From: Embleya scabrispora DSM 41855 | GTDB lineage: Bacteria; Actinomycetota; Actinomycetes; Streptomycetales; Streptomycetaceae | Length of the DNA stretch: 64,000 nucleotides | Assembly (NCBI RefSeq): GCF_000372745.1 | Contig: NZ_KB889585.1 | Location: 159,389 to 223,388 of the forward strand | Direction of reading: 5' to 3' | In this document: piece by piece, positions 11,027 to 52,699 of the stretch | How positions within the stretch are numbered: position 1 is the first letter of the stretch | Layout of the letters: the number at the start of each line of letters is the position of its first letter | The notes under the pieces: model-generated | Seen by the model: the letters and a program-made list of their open reading frames with translations, nothing else | What the model was told of the DNA's origin: nothing | Database searches by the model: none | Position numbers and translations under genes: made by a program

Positions 11027-11041
11027 CTGACGGATAGTCAG
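11027..11041. promoter_or_regulatory. Candidate TetR operator, copy 1
   Basis: CTGACGGATAGTCAG, perfect arms around a 5-base centre. It lies 75 bases upstream of the leftward dehydrogenase/racemase operon. One of eight copies of this palindrome in the window. Confidence 0.7.
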
Positions 11042-11228
11042 ATCAAAGTAACACCGGCCCGGGTTCATTTCGAGTGGCGGTCGGCAATAGATGTGTGGGC
11101 CCCGTCTCGCTCCCGCGTGCGCGCCCGGCGCGCCCGGAGCCGCGGCCGGGCGCGGCCGACGGACCGGTTCTGGACAAGTCCGGAAAAGTTACGGCGCGTC
11201 CGCGATCGACCACCTATCGTGGGTGGAC

Positions 11229-11489
11229 ATGAGCGGAAATGCTTGCCCGCAATGTGGTCGGGAACATCCGTGGTGCGACGCCGAGTGGTCGGCGTACGAT
11301 CCCGACGCGGACCGCCCGGGGCCGGTCGACGGCGACGCCGAGGGGCCGCCGTATCGGGTCGGCGAACTGCTGCCCGACATCCTCGATTTCCTCGCCCGCG
11401 GCAGCCGCGGGCCGGATTGGGCCGGGGCGCGCGAGAGCCCGGGTCGGTCCCTGCGGGGACTGATACCCGGGCCCAGGCGCCGTTATTGA
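11229..11489 (+). CDS. Small hypothetical protein with Cys-rich N-terminus
   Basis: 86 residues, not recognised. The first residues MSGNACPQCGREHPWCDAEW carry a CxxC and a third Cys near a His, as in a small zinc-knuckle. The middle is acidic (YDPDADRPGPVDGDAEGPPY), followed by a helix ELLPDILDFLARG. The ribosome site is weak. It sits between two leftward operons and runs the opposite way. The composition is plausible for a real small actinomycete protein but the gene is not certain. Confidence 0.5.
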   Translation: MSGNACPQCGREHPWCDAEWSAYDPDADRPGPVDGDAEGPPYRVGELLPDILDFLARGSRGPDWAGARESPGRSLRGLIPGPRRRY

Positions 11490-11610
11490 CGACGTGTCAG
11501 GGGACCGCGCGCGGTGCGATGGGCCGCCGTGCGAGGTGACGTGACGTCAGGATGCGCTGTGGCTTGCGGTATTGGGCGTATGAAGAGCTGTCGGGCGCGT
11601 GGCGTGACGG

Positions 11611-11633
11611 CCGTCGGGCGTACGGCCCGACGG
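11611..11633 (-). terminator. Hairpin after the ipdF-like gene
   Basis: CCGTCGGGC pairs with GCCCGACGG around a 5-base loop, about 40 bases past the stop of the leftward SDR gene. A repeated GCGCGTGGCGTGACGG block flanks it on both sides. Confidence 0.55.
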
Positions 11634-11673
11634 TCCGTCGAGCGCGTGGCGTGACGGCGACCGCCCTGTGCCG

Positions 11674-12459
11674 TCAGGCGCGCTGGGAGCTGACCGAGAC
11701 GACCTCGCCGGTCATGTACGAGGAGTAGTCCGAGGCCAGGAAGACCATCACGTTCGCGACCTCCCACGGTTCGGCGGCACGGCCGAACGCCTCGCGCGAG
11801 GAGAGCTCTTCGAGCAACTCCTCCGAGGACGCCCTGGCCAGGAACGCGTGCATCGCGATGCTCGGCGCGACCGCGTTGACCCGGACACCGAACTCGGCCG
11901 CCTCGACGGCCGAGCAACGGGTCAGCGCCATCACGCCGGCCTTGGCCGCGGCGTAGTGCGCCTGGCCCTTCTGCGCCCGCCAGCCCAGCACCGAGGCGTT
12001 GTTGACGATCACGCCCTTGCCGCGCGGCTGCATGTGCCGCAGCGCCGCCCGGGTGCAGCGGAAGGTGCCGTTCAGGGTCACGTTCATGACCAGGTCCCAC
12101 TGCGCGTCGGTCATGTCGACGAGGTTGGCCTCGCCGCCGAGCCCGGCGTTGTTGATCAGCACGTCGATGCCGCCGAGTTCGCGCGCGGCCGTGTCGATCA
12201 GGTTCTGCACGTCCTCCTCGACCGTGACGTCGCACGGGACGGCGAGCGGCCGCGATCCGATCAGCTTGGCGAGTTCGTCGGCGGCCTCGCCGAGTCGGCG
12301 CTCGTGCTTGTCGCTGATCGCGATCACGGCACCCTCCTCGGCGGCGCGCTTGGCCGCCGCGAAGCCGATCCCGGTGCCCGCCGCGGCGGTGATCAGCACG
12401 GTCTTGCCGGCCAGCAGGCCGTGTCCCTCGACGTATGCGGGGGCGGGGGTGGGGCTCAC
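11674..12459 (-). CDS. ipdF: SDR oxidoreductase, IpdF-like
   Basis: 261 residues. The Rossmann glycine loop is the unusual TAAAGTGIG (residues 24-32). NNAG, then ASVLGWRAQKGQAHYAAAKA with the catalytic Tyr and Lys, and the C-terminal YSSYMTGEVVSVSSQ complete a classical SDR. The N-terminal leader (PAYVEGHGLLAGKTVLITAA) and the tail match what I remember of the Rv3559c/IpdF group, which oxidises the 5-hydroxyl of ring-D-opened HIP intermediates. The gene is coupled (GTGA) to a FadE30-like dehydrogenase, which is also the mycobacterial neighbour of ipdF. The assignment rests on remembered family features and synteny; no alignment was run. Confidence 0.72.
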   Translation of the reverse strand: MSPTPAPAYVEGHGLLAGKTVLITAAAGTGIGFAAAKRAAEEGAVIAISDKHERRLGEAADELAKLIGSRPLAVPCDVTVEEDVQNLIDTAARELGGIDVLINNAGLGGEANLVDMTDAQWDLVMNVTLNGTFRCTRAALRHMQPRGKGVIVNNASVLGWRAQKGQAHYAAAKAGVMALTRCSAVEAAEFGVRVNAVAPSIAMHAFLARASSEELLEELSSREAFGRAAEPWEVANVMVFLASDYSSYMTGEVVSVSSQRA

Positions 12460-13640: not shown

Positions 13641-13735
13641 AGCGTGTCCAATCTCGTCTTCCGAGGGTCGGCGGCCACGCGCGCGACGTCCGGGGACACC
13701 GGACCCCGCGCGCGTGGTGCGTGCCGAGGGCTGGG

Positions 13736-14662: not shown

Positions 14663-14882
14663 GTGTTGTCCGCTCCTTGTCGGTGGCCTCGTCGGTAGGC
14701 CCCGGAAATCGAGGGCCGAGGCCCAGGTCGGGTCGGTCGTGGCGTGCTCCGCGGTCGGTGCGGCCGGGGCCGCTTCGAACGCCTGGTTCGGCCGCCCGCG
14801 CGGGACCCGCGCAGGCGTGCGCAGCCTCGCAGCCTTGCGGACGCAAGGTGCGCGGCCTGTGAGAACGCCCTCTCGACATTAT

Positions 14883-14897
14883 CTGACGATCCGTTAG
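14883..14897. promoter_or_regulatory. Candidate TetR operator, copy 2
   Basis: CTGACGATCCGTTAG, one mismatch in the right arm. Located between the divergent SDR and cyclase-family genes, so it could control both directions. Confidence 0.6.
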
Positions 14898-15042
14898 TTT
14901 TCCTGGGTAGAGTGCCGCAGCACACAGCACCATGCACAGTTCTTGACAGCACTTGACAGCGCGGTCGTCGGATTCCGAGAGTGCGCCTGTCGGTATTCGT
15001 GCCCATCGGCACGTGTCACCACCGCCTGGAGGAGGCTCCCCC

Positions 15043-15969: not shown

Positions 15970-16497
15970 TCGCGAGTCGGGGCGGCGTGGGTCCGGGGGC
16001 ATCCGGCCCGGGTCGGGCGCGGGCCCTCGAACAGGGGCGGCGCCGATCCGGCCGGCGTCCGCCCGGATCGGCGCGGCCCTCCGACACGCGTAGACCGGAC
16101 GGCATGCGGGCCCCGGACAGGATCGCCCCGTCCCGGGGCCCGCGTGCGCTCCGGGCACCGCGACGAGGCCCGGAACGATGACGGTCCCACTTCGTCGAGG
16201 AAACCCGGGGCACTTCCCGGGCGCCTCGTCGTCCCCTCGCGAACGACCGCCACACTCAGGGTGATCAGTGTCGGACGAGGCGTCAACACCCTTCGGACAT
16301 CGATTTGGTCGCCCGGATCACGATTCGTCTGCACATGGGCCGCCGCGTCGCATCGGCCACGTGCGCCCCACCGGACTCGGGTATCTCGGGTATCGCGCCC
16401 CCACCCGTTGAGGTCGGCATCTCCGCAACCGTGGGGCTTCGGGGCCGGGTTATATAATTGAATATATGTGGATAACCTCTGCGAAGGGAGAATCCTC
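15970..16497. other. 528-bp gap, promoter region only
   Basis: No coding frame with convincing composition. The right end holds an AT-rich patch unlike its surroundings (TATATAATTGAATATATG, about 16450-16467), the likely promoter of the following XRE gene. No toxin gene is found upstream of that antitoxin-like gene. Confidence 0.5.
16450..16467 (+). promoter_or_regulatory. AT-rich promoter or operator of the XRE gene
   Basis: 18 bases with only two G residues in a genome of very high GC, about 30 bases before the ATG, with ATATA/TATAT half-sites. It fits a -10 region overlapped by an autoregulatory site. Confidence 0.45.
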
Positions 16498-18510: not shown

Positions 18511-18516
18511 CGGGCG

Positions 18517-19947: not shown

Positions 19948-20057
19948 AGTCGCCCCGCCGGCACGGGTGGTGAACCGTCCGTCGATGCGACACGTGTGTG
20001 ATCGACGGGCTGCTCAGAGGCGGTTTCGGGGGGTGACGAGAGGACTGTCACAACCGG

Positions 20058-20072
20058 CTGACTGCTCATCAG
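20058..20072. promoter_or_regulatory. Candidate TetR operator, copy 3
   Basis: CTGACTGCTCATCAG, one arm mismatch. It lies about 115 bases before the zinc alcohol dehydrogenase gene and links that gene to the steroid regulon. Confidence 0.55.
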
Positions 20073-28334: not shown

Positions 28335-28889
28335 TCACGCGTTGGCGCTGGGGTGGCCGAACCGACCCTTGTAGAACAGCAGCGGAGCACACTCCACCCG
28401 CGGCGCGTCCAGGGCCTGGACCCGGCCGATCACTATCTCGTGGTCGCCGCCGTCGACCACGCTCTCCAGCGTGCAGTCGATCCAGGCGAGTACGTCGTCC
28501 AGCTTCGGCGAACCGGTCGGCGCCGGGCTGTGTGCGACGCCGGCGAACTTGTCCGCGCCGCTGACCGCGAAGCCCCGGCACAGTTGTTCCTGGTCCTCGG
28601 CGAGCACGTTCACGCAGAACCGGCCGCCCGGTCGGATCCGCGGCCAGGTGGTGGACGTCTTCGCCACGAAGAAGGTCACCAGCGGCGGGTCCAGCGAGAG
28701 CGACGCGAACGACTGGCAGGCGAAACCCACCGGGGTGTCGCCGTCGAGCGCGGTGATCACCGTGACGCCGCTGGCGAAGTGACCGAGGACATGCCGGAAC
28801 GTGGCCGCCTCGACGATGCCTTCACCCTCCGGCAGGGCAATGGCCGCGGGATCCGCGGGCTTCGTGCTCGCTGCGTCGATCTGGCCCAT
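28335..28889 (-). CDS. Flavin reductase (HsaB-like)
   Basis: 184 residues, flavin-reductase domain: TFRHVLGHFASGVTVITALD, VGFACQSFASLSLDPPLVTF and the DHEIVIGRVQALD strand. Such enzymes supply reduced flavin to a separate two-component monooxygenase. HsaB does this for HsaA in steroid ring A opening, and the length agrees. No oxygenase gene is visible in this window, so the partner is elsewhere. Start at 28889 follows a GAGGAAG box; an upstream ATG at 28964 has no such box. The 15-bp palindrome at 28989 lies before it. Confidence 0.8.
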   Translation of the reverse strand: MGQIDAASTKPADPAAIALPEGEGIVEAATFRHVLGHFASGVTVITALDGDTPVGFACQSFASLSLDPPLVTFFVAKTSTTWPRIRPGGRFCVNVLAEDQEQLCRGFAVSGADKFAGVAHSPAPTGSPKLDDVLAWIDCTLESVVDGGDHEIVIGRVQALDAPRVECAPLLFYKGRFGHPSANA

Positions 28890-28988: not shown

Positions 28989-29003
28989 CTGACGACTCGT
29001 CAG
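28989..29003. promoter_or_regulatory. Candidate TetR operator, copy 4
   Basis: CTGACGACTCGTCAG, perfect arms, 100 bases upstream of the leftward flavin-reductase gene. A second inverted repeat GTGACGctaCGTCAC lies about 60 bases closer to the gene (near 28927). Confidence 0.7.
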
Positions 29004-32440: not shown

Positions 32441-32455
32441 CTGACGGTTAGTCAG
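32441..32455. promoter_or_regulatory. Candidate TetR operator, copy 5
   Basis: CTGACGGTTAGTCAG, perfect arms, 60 bases upstream of the leftward acyl-CoA synthetase gene. Confidence 0.7.
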
Positions 32456-32587
32456 TTAGCTTGCTGATGGGACGTCAGGGCTGTCCACTGTCTCACCGGC
32501 CCGGTCCCGACGCATCTGTCCGATCACCTGGACATTTGCTGACTTGGTCAAACATGTTGCGGATATCTGCTGGTCATCGCGCGGTTA

Positions 32588-34222: not shown

Positions 34223-34237
34223 ATGACGGTGTGTCAG
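34223..34237. promoter_or_regulatory. Candidate TetR operator, copy 6
   Basis: ATGACGGTGTGTCAG, one arm change, between the divergent CoA ligase and acyl-CoA dehydrogenase genes. Confidence 0.6.
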
Positions 34238-35539: not shown

Positions 35540-36190
35540 CTAACGCGTCGGGGGCTTCTTCCCCGTGACGCCCATGAAGACCAGCGTGGACAGCGCCGGA
35601 CGGACGTCCTTCATCTTGATGTTCCAGGATTCGAAGCCCTTCTGGTGCCCGGCCACCGCCGCCAGCATCGCGACCAGGGTGCCCGCCATGGCGTTCGGCT
35701 GCACCTCGTCGCCGACCTTGCCCTTGGCCTGCATGTTCTCGATGGCCTCGGTGAGCGAGCCGGTGACCGCCGTCAGAATCTTCTGACGCACCTTGTAGAA
35801 GCGCTTGTCGCCCTCGGCCGAGGCCAGGTCGACGACGCGAAGGATCGGCTCGTAGTCCCGCCAGAATTCGAGGAAGCCGTCGGCCAGGGCCTCGGCGGCG
35901 GCGAAACCGCCCTTGCCGGCCCAGTTCTGGTCCTCGGCGAGAGTCTTCAGACGCTGGCCGTCCTTGGCCATGTCGTTCGCGATCTCGAGGATCGCACTCT
36001 CGACGTCCTGAAAGTACTGGTAGAAGGTGGCGGGAGAGGTGCCTGCCATACGGGCGACGTCGATGACCTTGACGTCCCGGTACGGAGACGTGTCGAGCAT
36101 CTCGCGGAGGCAGTCGAGCAGCTTTTGCCGCGTCGCCTGTCCGCGTCGCCCGGCGACGCGGCCGTCGACGGTGCGAACTTGTCCTGTCAT
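35540..36190 (-). CDS. TetR-family transcriptional regulator
   Basis: 216 residues. TetR helix-turn-helix at about residues 20-66 (TRQKLLDCLREMLDTSPYRD, VKVIDVARMAGTSPATFYQY, FQDVESAI). The C-terminal ligand domain is about 140 residues, and the protein ends in a basic tail. It lies 4 bases after an SDR gene, which puts it under the palindrome at 37088 and makes autoregulation likely. Its sequence does not resemble what I remember of KstR or KstR2, although it sits in a KstR2-type gene set. Ligand is probably a CoA-thioester of a steroid intermediate, by analogy. Confidence 0.86.
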   Translation of the reverse strand: MTGQVRTVDGRVAGRRGQATRQKLLDCLREMLDTSPYRDVKVIDVARMAGTSPATFYQYFQDVESAILEIANDMAKDGQRLKTLAEDQNWAGKGGFAAAEALADGFLEFWRDYEPILRVVDLASAEGDKRFYKVRQKILTAVTGSLTEAIENMQAKGKVGDEVQPNAMAGTLVAMLAAVAGHQKGFESWNIKMKDVRPALSTLVFMGVTGKKPPTR

Positions 36191-36194
36191 GCCG

Positions 36195-36998
36195 TCAGTT
36201 TACGGGCGCATGATCGGTCTCGCTGTCCGCCGCACGGAGGAAAGCGGGCATTTCCCCGCCGCCGTGCATGAGTAGTTCCGCTCCGCTGACATACCGTGAC
36301 ATCGGCGAGGCGAGGAACAGGCATACGTCCGCGACGTCGGAGGGATCCGCCATCCGACCGAGCGGAATCGTGTCGGCCACACGCTGCACGCCCGCCTCGT
36401 CCCCGTAGTGCAGGTGGGCCTGTTCGGTCCGAACCAGGCCCACGATCACCGAGTTGAGTCGGATCTTGGGTGCCCACTCGACGGCCAGCGAGCGGGTGAG
36501 CGAGTTCATCCCGGCCTTGGCCGCGCCGTAGGCGGCGGTGCCCGGCGAGGGGCGCACGCCGCTCACGCTGGAGATGTTCACGATCACCCCGCCGGAATCC
36601 TGACGGTGCATCAAGCGGTGGGCGGCCTGCGCGAAATACAGCGGACCGAGCAGGTTCAGCTCGATGATCGCCTTGGAGAACCGAGGTGACGCGGTGGCCG
36701 CGTCGGTCTGCGGCGCGCCGCCCGCGTTGTTCACCAGCACATCCAGTCGACCGAAGCGTTCCTCGACGAACTCCACGGCGGCGAAGGCCGTGTCGGGGTC
36801 GCGCACGTCCGCCGGGGTGTACACCGCGGTGCGCGCGCCGGCGGCGGGCAGTGTCTCCGGCTCGCGGCGCGAACACACCACCACATCGGCGCCGGCCGCC
36901 AGGAAGCGCTCGCTGATGCCCCGTCCGATCCCCTTGCCGCCACCGGTGACGAGAACGACGCGTCCACTCATGTCGAGCGGGTTGGGGGAGGACGTCAT
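36195..36998 (-). CDS. SDR-family oxidoreductase (Rv3549c-like)
   Basis: 267 residues. TGGGKGIG at residues 18-25, NNAG, Ser143/Ser144, Tyr157 and Lys161 make a complete active SDR, with SRYVSGAELLMHGGGEMPAF at the end. Position next to an enoyl-CoA hydratase of the EchA20 type and diverging from it is the same as Rv3549c/Rv3550 in mycobacteria, where the SDR belongs to the HIP regulon. It is followed at once by the TetR gene. The reaction is not established. Confidence 0.82.
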   Translation of the reverse strand: MTSSPNPLDMSGRVVLVTGGGKGIGRGISERFLAAGADVVVCSRREPETLPAAGARTAVYTPADVRDPDTAFAAVEFVEERFGRLDVLVNNAGGAPQTDAATASPRFSKAIIELNLLGPLYFAQAAHRLMHRQDSGGVIVNISSVSGVRPSPGTAAYGAAKAGMNSLTRSLAVEWAPKIRLNSVIVGLVRTEQAHLHYGDEAGVQRVADTIPLGRMADPSDVADVCLFLASPMSRYVSGAELLMHGGGEMPAFLRAADSETDHAPVN

Positions 36999-37087: not shown

Positions 37088-37102
37088 CTGACGATCAGTC
37101 AG
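37088..37102. promoter_or_regulatory. Candidate TetR operator, copy 7
   Basis: CTGACGATCAGTCAG, perfect arms, between the divergent SDR-TetR and echA20-ipdABC units, which it could control together. Confidence 0.72.
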
Positions 37103-43250: not shown

Positions 43251-43278
43251 GTCTCGGCAGACCACTTCCGCCCCGAAA

Positions 43279-43563: not shown

Positions 43564-45537
43564 ATGATTGCTTTGACCTTGAAAAAAGCTTCCTTCAGGA
43601 CCGTCGGTGCCGTGTGCACCACGGCTACGCTCGCCCTCGCGGCGAGCGTGTTGGTCGCGCCTGCGGCGCACGCGGAGCGGCCGACGCCGGCTGCGCCGGG
43701 TGATCCGGTGGAGTTGGTCTATGCGTCGGAGGCGGGATCCGGCCCCATTCGGCTGCTCCGTGCGGACGGCGGTGTCGGGCAGGCTCCGGTCGCCGACAGC
43801 GGGATCGGTGTCCTTCGCGCCGCGTCCAAGGACGGCAAGCGACTCGCGGGCCTCCCAAGCGCAAGCGGCGACCGTCGGGTCCGCACGATCAATGCCGACG
43901 GGACCAACCCCGCGCACATTGTGATACCGGGCATTTTCGGTACGGCTACGGCCTTCTCGCCGGACGGTTCAACCCTCTATCTGCAGGGCGACTTCGCCGA
44001 CGACGAGACCCAGACCCAGTCCCGCCTGCTGGTGGCCCCCGCGGATCGGGACGGGACCGCCCAGCCGCTGTTGCCGCCGCAGCCGGTCTCCTGTGACGGC
44101 GCCCTGTCCACGTCGACCGGTCGGTACGCCTTCGCTCGTAGGCAACAGGTCGGCGCCGGCTGCGGAGACACGCAGTCGGTGATGCTCTACAACCCGGGAA
44201 CAGGCGAGGTCGAGCCTGCCGTCGAACTCGACGAGGCGGGTGTGGAGGTTCCCGTCATGGGGCTCCCGCAAATCTCCCCGGACGGGACGCGCCTGGTCTA
44301 CGTGCGAACGTTGCCCGGCCCCGAGTCACGCCCCGAGATACGCGTTCTCGATCTGGCCACCAAGCGTGGCAAGACCGTGAATGTGGACAGCGCCCCCTGG
44401 TTCGCGAGGTGGTCGCCCGACGGTCGTTACCTCGCCTTCGGCGCCTACCAGTCCGTCAAGCGCGTCGATCTGGTGACGGGGCGAATCAACGACATGGGGA
44501 AGGCCTACCGGGACGTCAGCGCGATCTGGGCGAACCGCACCGTGACGCCGTCGGTGGGCGTGCGGGTGTACGGCTCGGACGCGATCGGCACCGGTGTGGC
44601 GACGTCGCGGTTCAAGTTCGACGCGGCTTCGACCGCCGTGGGGGCCCGCAAGGCCGATGTGGCGGTGTTGACCCGATCGGACGAGTTCTACGACGGACTG
44701 GCCGGTGCGGGGTTGGCCGGGCTGAAGAACGGGCCGATGTTGTTGACCCCCGGCGGCGGGTTGCCGGCGGCGGTCTCGATCGAGTTGGCCCGTGTGTTGT
44801 CGCCCGGCGCGACCGTGTACGTGCTCGGCGGCCGGGATGTCGTCTCGGCGACGGTGGACAACCAGGTTCGCGCGTTGGGCCTGGTGCCCAAGCGACTCGA
44901 AGGCGCGGCGGTCGCGGACACCGGTGTGGCCATCGCGAACGAGATGTCCAAGACGCCCAAGCGGGTGCTGGTCGCGACGGCCGAGGAGTACTACGACGCC
45001 CTCGCGGCGGGGGCGGCCGCGGGTTCCAGCCCGGATACCACGGTGATCTTCTCGTGGGGCGCGACCCTGCCCCCGGCAAGTGCCGCCTACCTGCGGGGAC
45101 TCGACCGTGCCAAGACCACGGTGACGGCCGTGGGCGGGCCGGCCGTAAGTGCGTTGGCGGCCGCGGGCATCCGTACCGATGCCGAGGCGAACGGCGATGA
45201 CGCCGCCGACACCGCGCGGTTGATCGCCGCCCGGTCCTTCGTCGAGCCCAAGGCGGTCGGGCTGGTGACGCTGGAGACCTGGCAGGACGCCCTGACGGGT
45301 GGGGCGTTGGTCTCCGGGCACGGGCCACTGCTGCTGACGGCCCGAGCCGGACTGCCCGATGCCACCACCGAGTACCTCGCGTCCACGGCTGTGTCCGTGG
45401 ATCGGGTGGTCACCGTCGGCGGGCCGTCGGCCGTCGACCCGGAGCAGGAGAAGACCGCGGTGCGCCTCACCGGTCCGTACGGCTTCCACGATCTCGTCGA
45501 CTCGCCGAACGGCGACGTCAAGGTGCCGCTCGGCTGA
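43564..45537 (+). CDS. Secreted beta-propeller protein with cell-wall-binding repeats (paralogue 1)
   Basis: About 657 residues. Signal peptide ending AHA at about residue 38 (hydrophobic core TTATLALAASVLVAPAAHA). PD40/WD40-like blades follow, recognisable by FSPDGSTLY, ISPDGTRLVYV and WSPDGRYLAFG (residues about 130-315). The C-terminal half (from RVYGSDAIGTGVATSRFKFD) holds three cell-wall-binding type-2 (PF04122) repeats with YVLGGRDVVS and TVGGPSAV hallmarks. It is likely held on the outer wall by the repeats while the propeller binds a ligand. A nearby TTG at 43573 could be the true start, as in paralogue 3. Confidence 0.85.
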   Translation: MIALTLKKASFRTVGAVCTTATLALAASVLVAPAAHAERPTPAAPGDPVELVYASEAGSGPIRLLRADGGVGQAPVADSGIGVLRAASKDGKRLAGLPSASGDRRVRTINADGTNPAHIVIPGIFGTATAFSPDGSTLYLQGDFADDETQTQSRLLVAPADRDGTAQPLLPPQPVSCDGALSTSTGRYAFARRQQVGAGCGDTQSVMLYNPGTGEVEPAVELDEAGVEVPVMGLPQISPDGTRLVYVRTLPGPESRPEIRVLDLATKRGKTVNVDSAPWFARWSPDGRYLAFGAYQSVKRVDLVTGRINDMGKAYRDVSAIWANRTVTPSVGVRVYGSDAIGTGVATSRFKFDAASTAVGARKADVAVLTRSDEFYDGLAGAGLAGLKNGPMLLTPGGGLPAAVSIELARVLSPGATVYVLGGRDVVSATVDNQVRALGLVPKRLEGAAVADTGVAIANEMSKTPKRVLVATAEEYYDALAAGAAAGSSPDTTVIFSWGATLPPASAAYLRGLDRAKTTVTAVGGPAVSALAAAGIRTDAEANGDDAADTARLIAARSFVEPKAVGLVTLETWQDALTGGALVSGHGPLLLTARAGLPDATTEYLASTAVSVDRVVTVGGPSAVDPEQEKTAVRLTGPYGFHDLVDSPNGDVKVPLG

Positions 45538-45551
45538 TCCGTGCACCCCTG

Positions 45552-45589
45552 CTCGGGGCCGGCCCGATCGCTCGTCGGGCCGCCCCGAG
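45552..45589 (+). terminator. Terminator hairpin between paralogues 1 and 2
   Basis: CTCGGGGCCGGCCCGA pairs with TCGGGCCGCCCCGAG (one bulge) just past the first stop. Confidence 0.7.
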
Positions 45590-45636
45590 CGGTTCCGTGC
45601 GAACGCGCGGCCACTATTTATCCGATTATGTGAAAG

Positions 45637-47595
45637 GTGATTGCTTTGACCTTGAGGAAAGCTTCCCTCAGGTCCGTCGGTGCCGTGTGCACCACGGCCA
45701 CGTTGGCACTCGCGGCGAGCGTGCTGCTCGCGCCCGCGGCGCACGCGGAGCGGCCAGCGCCGGCCGCTCCGGGTGATCCGGTGGAATTGATCTACACCGA
45801 GGGGTGGGTCGATGGCTCCAGTGTGGTCCGAGCGGATGGCACCGGCTCGGCCCCGTTCACGCCCAACGGGATCTCCGCCGTCGATGCGGTGTCCAGGGAC
45901 GGCAAGCGGCTCGCCGGCCGTTCCAGCGATGTCAACGATCGTCGGTACCGCACGGTCGACGTCGACGGGACCAAGCCCGTGAACATCGTGGTTCCGGGTA
46001 CCTCCAGCGGGGACCCGGCCTTCTCGCCGGACGGTTCGAAGCTGTACATGCAGGGCTCCGTTCCCGACGATCACGGGAACCAGTCCCGACTGATGGTGGC
46101 TCCTGCGGATCGGAATTCGACCGCGGAGCCGCTGTTGCCGGCGCAGACGGTCTCCTGCGACGGTTTCCTGTCCACGTCGACCGACCGGTATGCCTTCTCC
46201 CGGAAGGCTCCGATCGGCAACCGTTGTGACGGTGCGTCGTCGGTCATGCTCTACACCCCGGGAACGGGCGCGGTCGAGCCTGCGGTCGAGCTGAACGACG
46301 CGGATGTGGAGAGTCCGGTCACGGGGCTCTTCCCGAGCATCTCCCCGGATGGGACGCGTCTGGTCTACATGCGCATGTTGCCCACCGGTGACCGTGCCGA
46401 GTTGCGGGTCCTCGACCTGGCCACCAAGCGCGGCAAGGCCGTGTACGAGGACACCAACGTCTGGCCGGCCCGGTGGTCGCCCGACGGCCGCTACCTCGCC
46501 TTCGGCGTCTTCAACACAAGTAAGCGCCTCGACCTGGTGACCGGCGGAGTCAACTCCCTCGGGGCCGGGCAGACCGTGCCGATCTGGGCGAACCGCACCG
46601 TGACGCCGTCGGTGGGCGTGCGGGTGCACGGCTCGGACGCGATCGGTACCGGTGTGGCGACGTCGCGGTTCAAGTTCGACGCGGCGGGGTCGGCGACGGG
46701 TGCGCGCAAGGCGAACGTCGCGGTGTTGACCCGCTCCGACGCCTTCTACGACGGTCTCGCGGGCGCGGGTCTGGCGGGGGCCAAGGGCGGGCCGATGTTG
46801 CTCACCCCGAAGGCGGGCCTGGCGCCGGTCGTCTCCGCGGAGTTGACGCGGGTTCTCGCACCGGGGGCGACGGTGTACGTGCTCGGCGGCGGCGACGTCG
46901 TGTCCGTTGCGGTCGACAACCAGGTGCGGGCGCTGGGCTTCGTGCCCAAGCGGCTGGAGGGCGACGCGGTCGCGGACACCGGGGTGGTGATCGCGAACGA
47001 GATGACCACGTCGCCGAAGCGGGTGCTGGTCGCGACGGCCGAGGAGTACTACGACGCCCTCGCCGCGGGTGCCGCCGCCGGGTCGCGCTCGGACACCACG
47101 GTGGTGTTCACGTGGGGCACCACGCTGCCGGGCGCGACCGAGAACTACCTGCGTGCGCTGGATCGTTCGGTCACCGAGGTGACCGCCGTCGGCGGACCCG
47201 CCGTGACGGCGTTGCGGACGGCGGGCATCCCCGCCGATCGCACCGCGGACGGCACGGACGCGGCGGATACCGCGCGTCTGCTCGCGACCCGGTTCATGGA
47301 CCGGCCCAAGGCGGCCGCGCTGGTGTCCCAGGAGTCCTGGCAGGACGCGCTGACCGGAGGCGCGTTGATCGCCGGTCGCGGCCCGCTGCTGCTGACCACC
47401 GGGGACGGGCTGCCGGGGGCGACGGCCGACTACCTCACCGCGACGGCGCCCTCTCTCGATCGGCTCGTGACCGTCGGCGGGCCGCTCGCGGTGAGCGACG
47501 CCCAGGTCCGCGAGGCGACCGCGCTGACCGAGCCGAACGGCATGTACGACTTCGTGGACTCGCCGAACGGCGACGTGCAGGTGCCGATCGGCTGA
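45637..47595 (+). CDS. Secreted beta-propeller protein with cell-wall-binding repeats (paralogue 2)
   Basis: About 652 residues, close to paralogue 1 along its length, with a nearly identical signal peptide and three PF04122 repeats (for example VYVLGGGDVVSVAVDNQVRA, and TVGGPLAV near the end). Blades with FSPDGSKLYM, ISPDGTRLVYM and WSPDGRYLAFG precede them. Start GTG at 45637; a TTG at 45646 lies after a GAAAGGTGA box and may be the real one. Recent tandem duplication is clear from the conserved leader DNA. The differences concentrate in the propeller part, as if that part is evolving to bind different ligands. Confidence 0.85.
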   Translation: MIALTLRKASLRSVGAVCTTATLALAASVLLAPAAHAERPAPAAPGDPVELIYTEGWVDGSSVVRADGTGSAPFTPNGISAVDAVSRDGKRLAGRSSDVNDRRYRTVDVDGTKPVNIVVPGTSSGDPAFSPDGSKLYMQGSVPDDHGNQSRLMVAPADRNSTAEPLLPAQTVSCDGFLSTSTDRYAFSRKAPIGNRCDGASSVMLYTPGTGAVEPAVELNDADVESPVTGLFPSISPDGTRLVYMRMLPTGDRAELRVLDLATKRGKAVYEDTNVWPARWSPDGRYLAFGVFNTSKRLDLVTGGVNSLGAGQTVPIWANRTVTPSVGVRVHGSDAIGTGVATSRFKFDAAGSATGARKANVAVLTRSDAFYDGLAGAGLAGAKGGPMLLTPKAGLAPVVSAELTRVLAPGATVYVLGGGDVVSVAVDNQVRALGFVPKRLEGDAVADTGVVIANEMTTSPKRVLVATAEEYYDALAAGAAAGSRSDTTVVFTWGTTLPGATENYLRALDRSVTEVTAVGGPAVTALRTAGIPADRTADGTDAADTARLLATRFMDRPKAAALVSQESWQDALTGGALIAGRGPLLLTTGDGLPGATADYLTATAPSLDRLVTVGGPLAVSDAQVREATALTEPNGMYDFVDSPNGDVQVPIG

Positions 47596-47603
47596 GCCGA
47601 CCG

Positions 47604-47638
47604 GACCGGACGCGCGGGCTCACCCCGCGCGTCCGGTC
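47604..47638 (+). terminator. Terminator hairpin between paralogues 2 and 3
   Basis: A perfect 15-base stem (GACCGGACGCGCGGG and its complement) around a 5-base loop. Confidence 0.85.
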
Positions 47639-47733
47639 GGTTCCCGAGCCACCGCGATTCCCATTGAAGCGAGTGCGGTCGGTTGGCCGTCTGCTCCGAT
47701 TTCCTGATTCCCAATGACTTAGGAGCGTAGGAC

Positions 47734-49704
47734 TTGACGCATCCCATCAAGCGTCGATGGGCTGGTGGAGTTACCCTCTCGGCGATGACGCTGGCCATGT
47801 GCAGCGTAATGACTCCCGCCAAGGCGACGCCGGCGCAGCCTCCGCCCCCTATGGAGATGCTCTACACATACGCGACAGATGCCAACGGTGGATACCTGAC
47901 CGTTGCGCAGGCCGATAATGATCTCATGGGGTGGTATACGCCGATTCGGGATTTCTATCCGAGCAGCGCCTCCCCGGATGGAAGCCGTCTCGTCGGGAAT
48001 GGCGGTTCCGGTAACGGCTACAGCATGGTCAGGTCCATCGAAGTGAACGGCTCGGCTCCGATCGATATCAAGGATCCCCACGCGTCGTTGGTGGATCCGG
48101 AGTACTCGTCCGACGGCACGCGGTTGTTCATGACCAGGGATCCTCGTCTGGCGACCCAAGGGGCCACCGGCCTCTATGTCGCGCCGTCCGACGGCAGCGC
48201 GCCCCCGACACCCTTGTTCTCCGAGGCCGAGGCGGCCTGTGATTCCCACATGTCGGCATCGAGGATCGGGCTCTACGCCTTCACGCGTCGCGACAAGGAC
48301 GTCGACGGGAACTGCGACGGCGAGCAATCTCCTAGGGTCATGCTCTACAACGAGCAGACCGGAGCCACGACGTCTGTCACCTGGACCAACCAGGATGGCG
48401 AAGTTCTTCCGCTTTGGGACCGGGCCCCCGACATCTCGCCGGATGGGACCAGGATTGCCATCTCGGGTTGGCTGGATGGACACGGGGCGATCGGTGTCCA
48501 CGAATTGGCTACCGGCAAGCAGACCTGGACCGGGTCCGGTTATCAGGCTCCGATCGATCCCGACTGGTCTCCCAGCGGCCAATCGATTGCCTATGAGGAT
48601 TACTTGGGCGTGGCTGTCAAAAACTTCGAAACCGGGGGCGGAGGCAGGCGCGGTCCCAAGTTGAGTTCGCGACCGGTATGGCGGCCCCGTCCGGTTTCCC
48701 CGGCCACGGCCGTGAGGGTCTACGGGGAGAATGCGATCGACACGTCCATCGCGGCGTCGCGTTTCAAGTACGACGCGGCGGCATCCACCGAAACGGGAGC
48801 GCGCAAAGCCAGGACCGCCGTCCTGACCCGCGCCGACTCGTTCTACGACGGCCTGGCCGGCTCGGGCCTCGCGGGGGCCAAGGGCGGCCCGATGCTGTTG
48901 ACGCCGGGCAGCGGAATGACTCCGGAACTCTCGGCCGAGTTGAGCCGGGCTCTGGCGCCGGGTTCCACCGTGTATCTGCTCGGCGGTCGGGATGTACTCG
49001 GTGCTTCGATCGAGACCCAGGTGCGCTCGTTGGGCCTGGTGCCCCGGCGACTCGCGGGCAATGCCGTCGAGGACACCGCCATCGAGATTGCCGGCGAGAT
49101 GACCGCGACTCCCGAGAAGGTGCTCGTGGCCACCGCCGAGGAGTACTACGACGCCTTGGCCGCAGGCGCCGTCACCGGCACAGCAACGAACACGACGCTC
49201 GTGCTTACCTGGGGCGCCAACCTACCGACCGCTACCGCCGGATACCTGAACCGACTGAACCGATCACGGACGAAGGTGATCACCGTGGGTGGTCCCGCAC
49301 AGCGTGCCCTGGCGACAGCCGGAATCGCGGTCGATACGGCGCTCACGGGGCAGGACGCCACCGACACGGCCCGTCTGGTGGCCGATCGAGAGTTCTCCGC
49401 ACCTGCGTCGGTGGCCCTGGCCACCACGGAATCGTGGCAGGACGCGCTCACCGGTGGGGCGCTGATCTCGGGATACGGCCCGCTGCTGCTCTCGGCGCGG
49501 GCGCAACTGAGCAGTCCCGCACAGGAGTACTTGGCCGCGCATCAGGCATCACTGCGTCAAGCCGTGCTGTTGGGCGGCATGTACGCCCTTGCTCTGCCGA
49601 TGGACGACGCCGTCGGAAGGCTCATCGCGGACGGGCCGGGCGAGTACCGAACGTTCCATTCCCGCAACGGTGACGTTCGCGTCGCGTTGGACTGGCGGGG
49701 CTGA
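47734..49704 (+). CDS. Secreted beta-propeller protein with cell-wall-binding repeats (paralogue 3)
   Basis: 656 residues from a TTG start, with TAGGAG eight bases upstream. Signal peptide MTHPIKRRWAGGVTLSAMTL and beyond. The propeller half is diverged and less GC-rich (blades with SPDGSRLVGNG, SSDGTRLFMT and ISPDGTRIAIS). The C-terminal PF04122 half is closely related to the other two (VYLLGGRDVLGASIETQVRS). It has the same overall architecture, so it is the older member of the tandem family. Probably a wall-associated binding protein. No catalytic motif is visible. Confidence 0.84.
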   Translation: MTHPIKRRWAGGVTLSAMTLAMCSVMTPAKATPAQPPPPMEMLYTYATDANGGYLTVAQADNDLMGWYTPIRDFYPSSASPDGSRLVGNGGSGNGYSMVRSIEVNGSAPIDIKDPHASLVDPEYSSDGTRLFMTRDPRLATQGATGLYVAPSDGSAPPTPLFSEAEAACDSHMSASRIGLYAFTRRDKDVDGNCDGEQSPRVMLYNEQTGATTSVTWTNQDGEVLPLWDRAPDISPDGTRIAISGWLDGHGAIGVHELATGKQTWTGSGYQAPIDPDWSPSGQSIAYEDYLGVAVKNFETGGGGRRGPKLSSRPVWRPRPVSPATAVRVYGENAIDTSIAASRFKYDAAASTETGARKARTAVLTRADSFYDGLAGSGLAGAKGGPMLLTPGSGMTPELSAELSRALAPGSTVYLLGGRDVLGASIETQVRSLGLVPRRLAGNAVEDTAIEIAGEMTATPEKVLVATAEEYYDALAAGAVTGTATNTTLVLTWGANLPTATAGYLNRLNRSRTKVITVGGPAQRALATAGIAVDTALTGQDATDTARLVADREFSAPASVALATTESWQDALTGGALISGYGPLLLSARAQLSSPAQEYLAAHQASLRQAVLLGGMYALALPMDDAVGRLIADGPGEYRTFHSRNGDVRVALDWRG

Positions 49705-50041
49705 TCACGACCGAACGCATCGAGGAGCGCCCACGGCGGGCGATTCCCATGGGGCCGCCGGGATGACATCGGCGGACCCAGGGCACCGGTACCCGAGCCG
49801 GTCGAGCGCGTCGGTCGGTGGGCGCGGCAACGGGCTCGGTGGCCGCGCATTCGCGGGGCGGCGGATCCCTTCCCGCTGCGGGTAGGCGGGTCGGGCGCGA
49901 GGGTGGTGGTTATCCTCCGCGCATGCTTGGATGGGCCGCGACCCGGCGGGTACGGGCCCGGCGTGTGGATGTGAAGGTCCTTCCGGGGCGCATCGGATGC
50001 GGGTGACGTACGGGCCTTGGGCCGACGAAAGAGGTGGCGTC
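49705..50041. other. 337-bp gap between paralogues 3 and 4
   Basis: No coding frame or strong hairpin. An AGAGGTGG ribosome site lies near the right end for the following GTG start. Nothing else supported. Confidence 0.45.
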
Positions 50042-51184
50042 GTGCCCTTGCGAACCGCTGCGGGAAAGATCCGTCCGGTGTGGTTTCTCGCCGTCGCGCT
50101 GATCGTGGTGGCGGGTGCCATCGCCGCTTGGACGCTCGGTCGGGGCGATCACGACTCCCGAGGCCGAGCCGCCCCCGGCGAGACGGCCGCGCCCTCGAAC
50201 GGGCGGCAGGCGGACGGACCCGGGCCGACCGATCCCCCGTCCGACGGTCCCGAGACCGCTGCGGCGACCGACCTGGAGAACCCCCGCCTGATCCTGTACA
50301 TCGACGGTCGCCCGGTGCTCACCGATCACCGGGGCACCGATGCACCACAGGTCGAGATCGCCGTGCGGGACATCCGGATCGAGGCGATCTCCCCGGACGC
50401 CCACCGGGTCGTGGGCAATGTACTGAAGGCCGACGGCGCTGCCGGGACCGGGCTGCGCGTGGAGTCCCTGGACGGATCCGATCCGGTGGACTTCACGCCG
50501 AAGGACGGCGCGTTCATCCAGCCGGCGTTCTCCTCCGACGGCCACACGCTGTTCTTCACCCAGACGGCCGACTCGGCCGGCGTCACCCACTTCGGCGCCC
50601 GGATCATGTCCGTTCCGGTGGACGGTGGCTCGGCGCCCAAGCAACTCTTCGACGACGCCGACCAGTTCTGTGATTCGACGTTCTCCGCGTCCCGAGTCGG
50701 GCTGTACTCCTTCTCGCGCGCGGCGAAGATCACCGACGGCGAGGGTTGGCCGGATTCGCCACCGATGTGCTCGAGCACCGGGGGCATTCTCGTGCTGTAC
50801 AACGAGCACGACGGCTCGACCAAGGACCTACCGCGCCCGACGGAACTCGCGCCGGTGGACCCGCTCTCGGCCATCTCGCCGGACGGCAAGCGCCTCGCGG
50901 TGGTCTCGGTCGTCACGCACTCGACGCTGGTGTACGTCATGGATGCGGGAACCGGCGAGCTGACCAAGATTCCCACCAGGGCGCAGAGCGGTGGCGGGGG
51001 CGGCGCCCAACTCTGGGTCTTCGGCTGGTCCCCCGATGGCCGGGAGATCGCGATCGACTGGCAGAACGCGGAAAACTCGCAGGTCCCGCGCACAGTGGCC
51101 TACGACAGCCGGACCGGTGAGGCGACCACCATCTGGCCGGAAGACAGCAAGAAACCGCTCTGGGTGCCGGAACAGTCCGCGTAG
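50042..51184 (+). CDS. Membrane-anchored beta-propeller protein without wall-binding repeats
   Basis: 380 residues from GTG at 50042. A single membrane helix (VWFLAVALIVVAGAIAAWTL) near residue 15-35, a Pro/Gly/Asp linker, and then propeller blades including FSSDGHTLFFT, ISPDGKRLAVV and WSPDGREIAID. The propeller resembles that of the three upstream proteins (shared motif FCDSTFSASRVGLYSFSR). The PF04122 part is missing, so this member is held by the membrane instead of the wall. It may be the sensor partner of the secreted set. Confidence 0.8.
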   Translation: MPLRTAAGKIRPVWFLAVALIVVAGAIAAWTLGRGDHDSRGRAAPGETAAPSNGRQADGPGPTDPPSDGPETAAATDLENPRLILYIDGRPVLTDHRGTDAPQVEIAVRDIRIEAISPDAHRVVGNVLKADGAAGTGLRVESLDGSDPVDFTPKDGAFIQPAFSSDGHTLFFTQTADSAGVTHFGARIMSVPVDGGSAPKQLFDDADQFCDSTFSASRVGLYSFSRAAKITDGEGWPDSPPMCSSTGGILVLYNEHDGSTKDLPRPTELAPVDPLSAISPDGKRLAVVSVVTHSTLVYVMDAGTGELTKIPTRAQSGGGGGAQLWVFGWSPDGREIAIDWQNAENSQVPRTVAYDSRTGEATTIWPEDSKKPLWVPEQSA

Positions 51185-51414
51185 GCCCGAGCGTCGGTCG
51201 TAGCGGCTGCGACGAGGTCCCACCGCTTCCGAACGGTGGTCAGGCGGGCAAGGTCTCCGCGGGCCGACCGACCGGGTCGGGTACCGCGGGGCGCGACCAT
51301 CGGTGATACCGGTCGCGCCCTGCGTTTCTTCGATGACCGGTCCTCGGTCGCGGCCTGCGTTTCTTCGACCCCGGTCACCGCCGTCGTGCCCCGCGCTTCT
51401 TCGGGTACTTCCGG

Positions 51415-52581
51415 TCAGCCCAGGCGCTCGATGATGGTCACGTTGGCCTGGCCGCCGCCCTCGCACATGGTCTGGAGGCCGTAGCGGCCTCCCGTGCGCT
51501 CCAGGTGGTGGAGCAGGGTGGTCATCAGGCGGGCGCCGGTGGCGCCGAGCGGGTGGCCCAGGGCGATCGCGCCGCCGTTGGGGTTGACCTTCTCGTGCGG
51601 GGCCTTGATGTCCTTCATCCAGGACAGCACCACCGGCGCGAACGCCTCGTTGATCTCGACCGCGTCGATGTCGTCGATGCCCAGGCCGGACTTGGCGAAG
51701 GCGTACTCCGTGGCCGGGATCGGCGCGGAGAGCATCTCGATCGGCGACGCGCCGCGCACGCTCATGTGGTGGATCCGGGCGCGCGGGGTGAGGCCGTACC
51801 GCTTCAGCGCGCGCTCGGAGACGATCAGCAGCGCCGCCGCCCCGTCGGAGATCTGCGACGCGACGGCGGCGGTCATCCGGCCGCCCTCCATCAGCACCTT
51901 CAGCTCGGCCATCTTCTCCAGGGTGGTGCCTCGGCGCGGCGGCTCGTCGACCGAGACCGGCGTGCCGTCCACGTCGATCGGCGCGATCTCCTTCTCGAAC
52001 CACCCGTTGTCGATCGCGTGCAGGGCGCGCTCGTGCGACGCGAGCGCGAAGCGCTCCATCTCCTCGCGGGAGATGTCCCACCGCTTGGCGATCAGCTCGG
52101 CGCCGTAGAACTGGTCGACCGGCTCGTCACCGTAGCGCGCCACCCAGCCCTTGGAACCGGAGAACGGGTCGGAGAAGCCGAGCGGCACGGCCGAGGTCAT
52201 CGCCGATCCGATCGGGATCTGGTTCATGTTCTGCACGCCGCCGGCCACCACCACGTCCTGGGTGCCGGACATCACGCCCTGCGCCGCGAAGTGGATCGCC
52301 TGCTGCGACGAGCCGCACTGCCGGTCGATGGTGACCCCGGGCACCGCCTCGCTGTAGCCGGCGGCCAGCCACGCCGTGCGGGCGATGTCGCCGGCCTGCG
52401 GGCCGATGGTGTCCACACAGCCGAACACCACGTCCTCGACCACGTCCGGGTCGATCCCGCTGCGCTCGACCAGGGCCTTGATCGCGTGGGCGCCCAGGTC
52501 GGCCGGGTGCACCCCGGCCAGGCTGCCCTTCTTGCGGCCGACCGGCGTGCGGACCGCGTCGACGATGTATGCCTCGGCCAC
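51415..52581 (-). CDS. fadA6: FadA6-like thiolase
   Basis: 388 residues from GTG at 52581 (AAGGGGG box before it). Thiolase fold with VRTPVGRKKGSLAGVHPADL, the nucleophile Cys in IDRQCGSSQQAI, VNPNGGAIALGHPLGATGAR with the active His, and CEGGGQANVTIIERL at the end with the second Cys. In mycobacteria FadA6 thiolyses the ring-opened product MOODA-CoA-derived beta-keto thioester. Located near FadE31 as in actinobacterial clusters. The palindrome at 52685 precedes it. Other thiolases would look similar, so the number 6 relies on context. Confidence 0.82.
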   Translation of the reverse strand: MAEAYIVDAVRTPVGRKKGSLAGVHPADLGAHAIKALVERSGIDPDVVEDVVFGCVDTIGPQAGDIARTAWLAAGYSEAVPGVTIDRQCGSSQQAIHFAAQGVMSGTQDVVVAGGVQNMNQIPIGSAMTSAVPLGFSDPFSGSKGWVARYGDEPVDQFYGAELIAKRWDISREEMERFALASHERALHAIDNGWFEKEIAPIDVDGTPVSVDEPPRRGTTLEKMAELKVLMEGGRMTAAVASQISDGAAALLIVSERALKRYGLTPRARIHHMSVRGASPIEMLSAPIPATEYAFAKSGLGIDDIDAVEINEAFAPVVLSWMKDIKAPHEKVNPNGGAIALGHPLGATGARLMTTLLHHLERTGGRYGLQTMCEGGGQANVTIIERLG

Positions 52582-52684
52582 TGGGGCCCCCTTGATCCTC
52601 GATTGTTCGACTGACGATTTCCCTCGCCCGCGTGTCCGATCGCACGCCGCCCACGGTGTCGCCACACCGTACGGAACGGTTAAC

Positions 52685-52699
52685 CTGACGACCCGTCAG
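52685..52699. promoter_or_regulatory. Candidate TetR operator, copy 8
   Basis: CTGACGACCCGTCAG, perfect arms, between the divergent fadA6 and fadE31-like genes, which it could control together. Confidence 0.72.

What the first reader, a model, noticed from the sequence alone, without database searches (positions are those of the whole stretch)
11027..52699. Eight copies of one 15-bp palindrome define a steroid regulon
CTGAC-N5-GTCAG (with up to one arm change) occurs at 11027, 14883, 20058, 28989, 32441, 34223, 37088 and 52685. Every copy is in a promoter gap of a catabolic gene and four sit between divergent gene pairs, while none was noticed inside the catabolic genes. It links the racemase operon, SDR/FadE30 operon, alcohol dehydrogenase, flavin reductase and all ring C/D genes. 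It differs from the published KstR and KstR2 sites I know.
Basis: seen in the sequence. Interest (0 to 1): 0.75.

Follow-up and report, generated by a model that had tools for sequence, protein, structure and literature searches.

The report
Genome-wide operator of an orphan TetR
The repeated 15-base palindrome is real and is very probably the landing site of the TetR-type regulator encoded beside it, but that regulator reaches far beyond steroid genes: the site occurs more than a hundred times in this genome, and the same protein and site recur in distant Actinobacteria, including Streptomyces, where the gene has had no known function.

Summary
The palindrome is confirmed: five exact copies in the window (0.06 expected), all between genes; 18 with at most one change (2.7 expected). 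All eight listed sites are identical in a congener. It does not define a steroid-only regulon. The genome holds 126 exact copies (reversed pattern: 3), 87 upstream of genes, many unrelated to steroids; the fuller consensus is ANCTGACGNNNCGTCAGNT. The binder is very probably the TetR at 35540-36190, the genome's only PF19352 (TetR_C_38) protein. Among 396 genomes of the phylum, all 18 with 12 or more sites carry a strong PF19352 gene, against 9 of the other 378. In some distant families sites precede orthologues of the window's steroid operons. A one-change site overlaps the likely TetR start codon here, in Streptomyces and in Actinomadura. By synteny the Streptomyces orthologue is SCO4421, beside afsK, function unassigned. 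The operator differs from those of KstR and KstR2 yet occupies the divergent promoter that KstR2 controls in mycobacteria: apparently a different TetR on the same operons. Binding is inferred from co-occurrence and footprints; repression and ligand are inferred.

The parts
11027..11041 (.). Exact operator, 82 bp (centre) before acyl-CoA dehydrogenase 9771-10952 (-), first gene of the ACAD/CoA-transferase III/MaoC operon
   Evidence: in L156, L160 and L185 an exact site precedes the orthologous operon
14883..14897 (.). Operator with one arm change between SDR 13736 (-) and cyclase-family 15043 (+)
   Evidence: sixth of all window positions by matrix; identical in G397 and G396
20058..20072 (.). 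Weakest of the eight: one change, before zinc alcohol dehydrogenase 20174 (+)
   Evidence: rank 14, background-like score; identical in G397 and G396
28989..29003 (.). Exact operator before flavin reductase 28335-28889 (-), HsaB-like (below the curated cut-off)
   Evidence: an exact site also precedes the G023 orthologue (L271)
32441..32455 (.). Exact operator before ATP-grasp acyl-CoA synthetase 30182-32320 (-); half of a tandem pair
   Evidence: 22 of 24 related loci (mostly Streptomyces) have at least one exact site at this promoter, 12 have two spaced 24 bp
32464..32478 (.).
34223..34237 (.). Operator with one change (A at position 1) between FadD3-like ligase 32588 (-) and IpdE2-like acyl-CoA dehydrogenase 34318 (+)
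   Evidence: the same A variant precedes the 34318-like dehydrogenase in L145, L146, L147, L148 and L149
35540..36190 (-). TetR-family regulator, 216 aa, TetR_C_38 (PF19352), the only one found in the genome; proposed binder of the sites
36184..36198 (-). One-change operator CTGACGGCATGACAG overlapping the likely TetR start codon (first ATG of the longest frame); candidate autoregulatory site
   Evidence: same letters at the start of the match in Streptomyces L182, L206 and L224
36195..36998 (-). SDR upstream of and probably co-transcribed with tetR
37088..37102 (.). Exact operator in the divergent promoter SDR 36195 (-) / EchA20-like 37199 (+); highest matrix score in the window
   Evidence: identical in Yinghuangia soli L183
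37199..40820 (+). EchA20-like hydratase, IpdA-like, IpdB-like, IpdC-like NMO: steroid ring C/D operon
   Evidence: Ipd names by order and family, no Ipd-specific model was hit for these
52685..52699 (.). Exact operator between FadA6-like thiolase 51415-52581 (-) and acyl-CoA dehydrogenases 52772-54956 (+)
   Evidence: exact site before the orthologous dehydrogenases in L127 and L131

Best explanation
CTGAC-N5-GTCAG (fuller form ANCTGACGNNNCGTCAGNT) is the operator of the TetR_C_38-family regulator encoded at 35540-36190. Shown by computation: the motif is about 40 times as frequent as its reversed control genome-wide, concentrated in promoter gaps, tracks the presence of this one protein family across the phylum, and lies at or near the regulator's own gene in many lineages. 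Inferred: a dimer of the TetR binds each palindrome near promoters and represses transcription, autoregulates, and is released by a small ligand, most likely a CoA thioester or alicyclic acid from steroid ring C/D or similar catabolism. Its setting among orthologues of steroid operons in several distant families suggests an old link with steroid catabolism. In Streptomycetales it has many more sites: a core cluster around its own gene plus dozens of dispersed CoA-linked, F420-linked and other genes. In this organism it sits where KstR2 sits in mycobacteria, with a different operator.
For: Enrichment: 126 exact sites against 3 reversed-pattern sites in the genome; in the fetched 1.13 Mb, chosen around these sites, any other spacer from 0 to 20 gives 0-2 (mean near 0.8, so about 8 genome-wide). 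Position: 80 of 126 outside genes though about 82% of that DNA is coding. Conserved A two bases out and G/C beside the arms, stronger in the intergenic set. Binder: one PF19352 gene in the genome; all 18 of 396 genomes with at least 12 sites carry a strong hit, 9 of the other 378 do; in 61 close relatives all 51 carriers have 5-312 sites, the ten others 2-8. Adjacency: exact sites just upstream of tetR in L131, L167 and L176; one-change site over the likely start codon in Streptomyces, Actinomadura and the window. Orthologous operons with sites in distant lineages. Footprints: 19 of the first 30 G397 sites fall within 60 bp of the projected place of a G000 site, 13 with a changed spacer. Nearly invariant recognition helix.
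Against: No binding was measured. The sign of regulation is not shown; no -10 or -35 element was found at a fixed distance from the site. 31 of 126 sites lie inside genes, more than either control predicts; three sites classed as inside recur near the same place in G397. Some strong carriers have little excess (G016 2 against 3, G040 6 against 3, G050 6 against 1). In 9 of 15 other Streptomycetales loci fetched around tetR (9-13 kb each) there is no exact site (L314-L316, L318, L320-L324). In the 16 best non-streptomycete titled loci few strong orthologues of the window's catabolic genes lie near tetR: 6 of 16 have any at 50% identity or more. The genomes are related, so the Fisher p value overstates the number of independent events. 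SCO4421 deletion had no visible phenotype (PMC3878966, passages).
Confidence: 0.85

Rival explanations
1. A steroid-specific regulon: the TetR controls only steroid ring C/D genes and the other genomic sites are chance or inert.
For: In the window and in some distant lineages the sites sit at steroid gene promoters; sites are concentrated around tetR, 11 of 126 in 88 kb.
Against: 126 sites against 3 in the reversed control; dispersed intergenic sites recur in G397 (16 of the 19 recurring sites); G023 of genus g2, Streptomyces by DNA match, has 48 sites, and 55 of 57 Streptomyces genomes lacked a steroid pathway in PMC4810484 (passages).
Confidence: 0.07
2. The sites are bound by a different regulator, or by several paralogous TetR/MarR proteins sharing a half-site, and PF19352 merely co-occurs.
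For: MarR genes (4 of 81 scanned neighbours) and a TetR_C_20 gene lie next to some sites.
Against: Motif excess follows PF19352 across six families; one PF19352 gene goes with 126 sites; MarR-adjacent sites are a small minority; sites lie at tetR itself.
Confidence: 0.06
3. The TetR acts mainly as an activator, or as both activator and repressor, rather than as a classical repressor.
For: Site-to-start distances are broad (from inside the start to nearly 500 bp) and no fixed overlap with promoter elements was found.
Against: Kinship in fold to the repressor EthR; a site over the likely start codon fits repression; KstR and KstR2 repress the equivalent genes (PMC1995591, PMC3068626, passages).
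Confidence: 0.15
4. The palindrome is an RNA hairpin or another repeat element rather than a protein site.
For: CTGACG-N3-CGTCAG could form a six-pair stem.
Against: Position 6 is G in only about 70% of sites; 27 sites lie between divergent genes; no flanking repeat beyond the A/T two bases out; co-occurrence with one DNA-binding protein family.
Confidence: 0.02

Closest known systems
KstR2 (Mycobacterium, Rhodococcus)
   Same: TetR-type regulator encoded within the steroid ring C/D gene cluster; a palindrome in the divergent promoter SDR/echA20 (Rv3549c-Rv3550 there, 37088 here) and before its own operon (PMC3068626, passages).
   Different: KstR2 site is AnCAAGnnCTTGnT; the window has none exact and two one-change hits, both inside genes. 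KstR2: a 15-gene regulon with three motifs per genome; here 126 exact sites, 80 of them intergenic. No solved-structure hit is named KstR2, though several hits carry only generic names.
SCO4421 (Streptomyces coelicolor TetR beside afsK)
   Same: By synteny the orthologue: 57 of 59 Streptomyces-titled tetR loci and 7 of 7 genus-g2 loci carry an AfsK-like kinase gene (kinase plus PQQ repeats by Pfam in L145); the paper places TetR gene SCO4421 close to afsK SCO4423 (PMC3878966, passages).
   Different: Genus-g2 genomes have 11-48 sites rather than 126. The window has no AfsK-like gene. SCO4421's function was reported as unclear. I did not read the SCO4421 sequence itself.
EthR (Mycobacterium tuberculosis)
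   Same: Nearest solved structure by sequence profile (E 2e-10) and by fold (TM normalised to the query 0.74-0.80).
   Different: About 19% identity; EthR's known target and operator are different (recalled).
KstR
   Same: TetR-type, large lipid/steroid regulon, represses itself, short palindrome (PMC1995591, abstract and passages).
   Different: Motif TnnAACnnGTTnnA; one match in the window at 56489, where 12 of 100 shuffles give as many.
SRTF1 (Nocardioides simplex KR76_27130)
   Same: Another TetR steroid-responsive regulator outside KstR/KstR2 (PMC7807495, section 15).
   Different: Linked to kstD2; not compared by sequence here.

Membership tests
TetR family of regulators | N-terminal TetR helix-turn-helix and all-helical ligand domain | tested here: met
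   TetR_N E 5.8e-5 (23.2 bits, just under the cut-off of 24) in the window protein and 26.8 bits in L145; AF2 model mean pLDDT 93.5, ten helices, best folds EthR
TetR_C_38 (PF19352) | C-terminal domain above the curated cut-off | tested here: met
   218.1 bits against 23.9
KstR2 | Binds AnCAAGnnCTTGnT | tested here: not met
   sequence test only: 0 exact in the window; 2 one-change hits, both inside genes; the window operons carry another palindrome instead
KstR2 | Encoded in and controlling ring C/D genes (ipdAB, ipdC, echA20, fadA6, fadE) | tested here: met
   gene content and sites; control itself inferred
KstR2 | Orthology to Rv3557c | tested here: inconclusive
   no hit named KstR2 at E up to 1 or in the profile search, but some names are generic; no direct alignment with Rv3557c; PF17932, recalled as its family, proved unspecific
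KstR | TnnAACnnGTTnnA sites at steroid promoters | tested here: not met
   one match, near chance
Steroid-specific regulon | Sites confined to steroid genes | tested here: not met
   126 sites genome-wide, varied neighbours
SCO4421 orthologue group | afsK-linked TetR in Streptomyces with the same domain and operator | tested here: met
   for the Streptomyces relatives: PF19352 in 11 of 11 genus-g2 genomes; AfsK-like neighbour in 57 of 59 Streptomyces-titled loci; motif above control in all 11, weakest in G171 (11 against 4). The window copy is not beside an afsK-like gene
TetR repressor | Represses target promoters; released by ligand | not testable with these tools
   needs expression and binding assays

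The most novel reading that the evidence does not exclude
A phylum-wide family of TetR regulators (TetR_C_38, including by synteny the orphan SCO4421 beside afsK in Streptomyces) uses one strictly conserved operator. It replaced KstR2 on the steroid ring C/D operons in Streptomycetales such as this genus and Yinghuangia, and in Streptomycetaceae grew from a pathway regulator to a global regulator with tens to about 300 sites that links alicyclic and CoA-ester catabolism to the afsK developmental locus.
Probability: 0.5. Interest if true: 0.75.

Novelty: new member of a known kind. Interest (0 to 1): 0.63.

Why it matters
It gives a testable operator, and a predicted regulon that can be listed genome by genome, to a regulator family found in all 51 sampled genomes of the two Streptomycetales families f1 and f77, whose function has been unassigned in the one paper found. 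It suggests that the same steroid ring C/D operons are wired to different operators in different Actinobacteria, so KstR2 sites cannot be assumed everywhere. The strong single palindrome also makes it a sensor or switch candidate once the ligand is known.

Tried and rejected
Promoter geometry: looked for -10/-35 elements at a fixed distance from the site; nothing convincing.

Literature for the motif: literal strings gave no paper. A broader search for half-sites with Streptomyces/TetR gave 22 papers, ten listed, which look incidental from the listing; none was opened. PF19352 or TetR_C_38 gave no paper. SCO4421 gave one paper. A search for afsK with TetR and sterol terms gave none. The library is open-access only, so papers elsewhere on this regulator could be missed.

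KstR2 presence elsewhere in the genome: tried PF17932, recalled as the KstR2 domain; it matches 10 places here and 7 of 14 control genomes, so it says nothing. Whether the genome also has a KstR2 is therefore open.

Several paralogous regulators sharing the operator: considered because MarR and TetR genes lie by some sites; rejected as the main cause.

Target-gene enrichment: among 75 non-window neighbour genes 19 match eight catabolic families, against 3 to 9 of 81 control genes (the control table shows only the 25 commonest families, hence the range). Fisher p is 0.0001 to 0.02. Suggestive only; the eight families were chosen after seeing the result, and some control proteins are cut by locus ends. 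Of 90 adjacent genes (60-700 aa, within 350 bp) 81 were scanned; nine short or edge-cut ones were dropped, and genes over 700 aa were excluded beforehand, among them the window's ATP-grasp synthetase.

A slip corrected: and in one note I counted 12 of 48 G023 sites near tetR; the list gives 11 in 61.6 kb (0.3 expected). Another: a draft placed the ring C/D orthologues in named Acidimicrobiia; one search shows they lie mainly in unnamed families, and the text now says so.
Full report
WHAT WAS CHECKED. The eight listed copies are in the sequence as stated: five exact and three with one arm change. Exact copies are far above chance (5 against 0.06; 0 of 100 shuffles reach 5), and so is the one-change set (18 against 2.72). 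With two changes allowed the excess is weak (49 against 37.7; 8 of 100 shuffles reach it). All eight lie outside called genes and four sit between divergent genes. The statement that none lies inside catabolic genes holds for exact copies only: one-change hits occur inside genes at 5245, 8047, 8217, 18122 and 31304.

GENOME-WIDE. The window is C25:159389-223388 of an 11.39-Mb, 190-contig assembly (98.3% complete, 3.4% contamination). That genome has 126 exact copies, and 3 of the reversed pattern. I listed all 126 and fetched their surroundings (plus the window itself). In those 1.13 Mb, chosen because they hold the sites, arms separated by any spacer of 0 to 20 other than 5 occur 0 to 2 times (about 0.8 on average, so roughly 8 per genome); 80 of the 126 are outside genes in DNA that is 82% coding. 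By gene context 60 are upstream of one gene, 27 between divergent genes, 31 inside genes and 8 other (home-made gene caller). The intergenic set shows extra conservation, A two bases before the palindrome and G/C next to the arms, giving ANCTGACGNNNCGTCAGNT; the A is weaker and the G/C preference absent in the intragenic set. A matrix built from 67 sites outside the window ranks the window's five exact sites, 14883 and 34223 as its top seven positions; 20058 comes 14th.

WHAT THE TARGETS ARE. Genes next to sites are varied: SDRs, luciferase-like oxidoreductases, crotonases, SnoaL-like proteins, CoA-transferases, thiolases, amidohydrolases, acyl-CoA dehydrogenases, a ChsH2-like protein followed by a lipid-transfer thiolase, but also ALAD, UreF, ribulose-phosphate epimerase, ABC transporters, MarR regulators and a sigma factor. 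Catabolic families are over-represented against distant control genes, moderately. So the motif does not define a steroid regulon; the steroid ring C/D genes are part of a wider set. Sites are nevertheless concentrated around the TetR gene: 11 of 126 within 88 kb (about 1 expected, stretch chosen after the fact), and in genome G023 11 of 48 within 62 kb (0.3 expected).

WHO BINDS. The TetR at 35540-36190 has the domain TetR_C_38 (PF19352, 218 bits) and is the only such protein found in the genome. I counted the motif and searched PF19352 over the same 396 genomes of the phylum. Every one of the 18 genomes with at least 12 exact sites has a strong PF19352 hit (E below 1e-20); of the other 378 only 9 do (Fisher p 8e-25, not corrected for relatedness). 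The 18 fall in six families (f1, f16, f17, f44, f70, f74). Weak points: G016 (2 against 3 control), G040 (6 against 3), G050 (6 against 1) carry the family with little excess. In the 61 nearest genomes, 51 carry PF19352 (all of f1 and f77) with 5 to 312 sites, and the ten without it have 2 to 8. The recognition-helix segment TSPATFYQYF is nearly invariant.

SETTING IN OTHER LINEAGES. In unnamed distant families, exact sites precede orthologues of the window's genes: acyl-CoA dehydrogenases 52772/53928 and thiolase 51415 (L127 of f17, L131 of f44), the 9771-8591-8067-7597-6445 operon (L156, L160 of f70), and the 12456-11674 pair (L132 of f44); a one-change site lies between EchA20-IpdA-IpdB-IpdC and SDR 36195 (L132). 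The TetR gene (42-54% identical, one second copy 35%) lies in the same stretch in G134 (f44), G374 (f74), G322 and G294 (f70); in G025 it is on another contig, and in G284 one copy is far away and a diverged one is nearby. A scan of titled genomes, best 80 of 524 relatives, gave Acidimicrobiia (Ilumatobacteraceae, Aquihabitans, Microthrix), Actinomadura, Yinghuangia and many Streptomyces. In the 16 best, non-streptomycete loci there are 26 exact sites in 242 kb and no reversed ones; in the other 64 loci, 143 against 2. Only 6 of those 16 loci have a strong (50% or more) orthologue of the window's catabolic genes, mostly the FadD3-like ligase and crotonase 29084, and none has IpdA or IpdB; so the old link with ring C/D rests mainly on f44, f17 and f70. 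Yinghuangia soli has the same IpdC-IpdB-IpdA-EchA20 / SDR-TetR order, a 91% identical TetR and an exact site in the divergent gap.

STREPTOMYCES. Genus g2 is Streptomyces to judge from 82-88% DNA identity of its seven fetched tetR loci to Streptomyces-titled records. There the TetR (65-71% identical) lies beside a Ser/Thr kinase with PQQ repeats and a glyoxalase-like gene (Pfam in L145); an AfsK-like gene is present in 57 of 59 Streptomyces-titled loci and 7 of 7 g2 loci, and absent from the window. That is the afsK neighbourhood, where PMC3878966 places the TetR gene SCO4421: developmentally regulated, no deletion phenotype, function unclear (passages read). Equating the two is synteny, not a sequence comparison with SCO4421. 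In two of three f77 loci (Catenulispora-like, name inferred) the TetR is in a flavin reductase-crotonase-ATP-grasp-ligase-TetR-SDR cluster; in L318 only the TetR was recognised. In 9 of the 15 further Streptomycetales loci no exact site lies within the fetched 9-13 kb.

FOOTPRINTS. In front of the ATP-grasp acyl-CoA synthetase, 22 of 24 related loci (mostly Streptomyces) have at least one exact site and 12 have two spaced exactly 24 bp, with arms kept and the five central bases largely different; the window has the pair at 32441 and 32464 (23 bp, the second with one change). A site with at most one change lies within about 330 bp upstream of tetR, or over its start, in 68 of 80 loci; in the window and in Streptomyces L182, L206 and L224 it reads CTGACGGCATGACAG and contains the ATG. 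In the congener G397, 19 of the first 30 sites fall within 60 bp of the projected place of a site in the window's genome, 16 of them intergenic, 13 with a changed spacer. All eight reader sites plus 32464 and 36184 are identical in G397; in G396 nine are identical and one did not align. G023 and the window's genome share site-bearing promoters for the ATP-grasp synthetase, the flavin reductase, a ChsH2-like gene and an AMP-ligase/amidohydrolase pair (30 of 48 G023 sites examined).

HOW IT PROBABLY WORKS. A TetR dimer sits on each palindrome near promoters and, like its fold relative EthR and the functional counterparts KstR and KstR2, blocks transcription until a ligand releases it; it controls its own operon through 37088 and 36184. 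Binding is strongly supported indirectly; repression, ligand and autoregulation are inferences. The ligand guess (CoA esters or alicyclic acids of ring C/D type) rests on the genes it sits among.

AGAINST THE KNOWN. KstR2's motif AnCAAGnnCTTGnT (PMC3068626, passages) has no exact copy in the window, and KstR's TnnAACnnGTTnnA (PMC1995591, abstract and passages) only one near-chance match. KstR2 controls the divergent Rv3549c/Rv3550 promoter; site 37088 is in the equivalent gap here (gene roles of Rv3549c and EchA20 also in PMC5380842, passages). This looks like replacement of one TetR and operator by another on the same operons; a KstR2 elsewhere in the genome was not excluded. PMC4810484 (passages) found steroid pathways absent from 55 of 57 Streptomyces genomes, so in most of these the regulator must serve something else. 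No paper in the open library held the motif string or the Pfam family; one held SCO4421. Other literature could not be searched.

ORGANISM. The window's genus is not named by the tools. It shares a family with genus g2 (Streptomyces) and its TetR is 91% identical to that of Yinghuangia soli, which places it in Streptomycetaceae; Embleya is my guess from memory.

Noticed in passing
G421 and G401: Some relatives in the family have very many sites: 312 exact (14 control) in 8.3 Mb and 260 (2 control) in 7.8 Mb, far more than the window's genome.
   Followed up: partly
window 10953-11673: The long gap between 10952 and 11674 holds one exact site and two one-change sites (11027, 11486, 11536); in the congener G397 11486 keeps a TTGAC-GTCAG form with a different spacer, 11536 did not align.
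   Followed up: partly
L023:5001 and L251: An exact site lies about 46 bp inside the called start of a gene conserved at 77% between the window's genome and G023, at the same position in both.
   Followed up: no
L033 (C25:132621-148555), outside the window to its left: Four exact sites within 6 kb, including one 52 bp before a delta-aminolevulinate dehydratase gene and one between an isochorismatase-family gene and an amidohydrolase.
   Followed up: partly
L035 (end of C25) and L103 (end of C190): The same site sequence lies 352 bp from both contig ends, with a ligase fragment; a repeat or assembly overlap, so the count of 126 may include a few duplicates.
   Followed up: no
G284: L130 and L157: Two TetR_C_38 copies in one genome, both with a changed recognition segment (SPAAFYQYF); the second, 35% identical, lies in another catabolic stretch.
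   Followed up: no
window 43708-51184: Proteins with cell-wall-binding-2 and PD40 repeats interrupt the catabolic region between the IpdC-like/MMPL genes and the thiolase.
   Followed up: no
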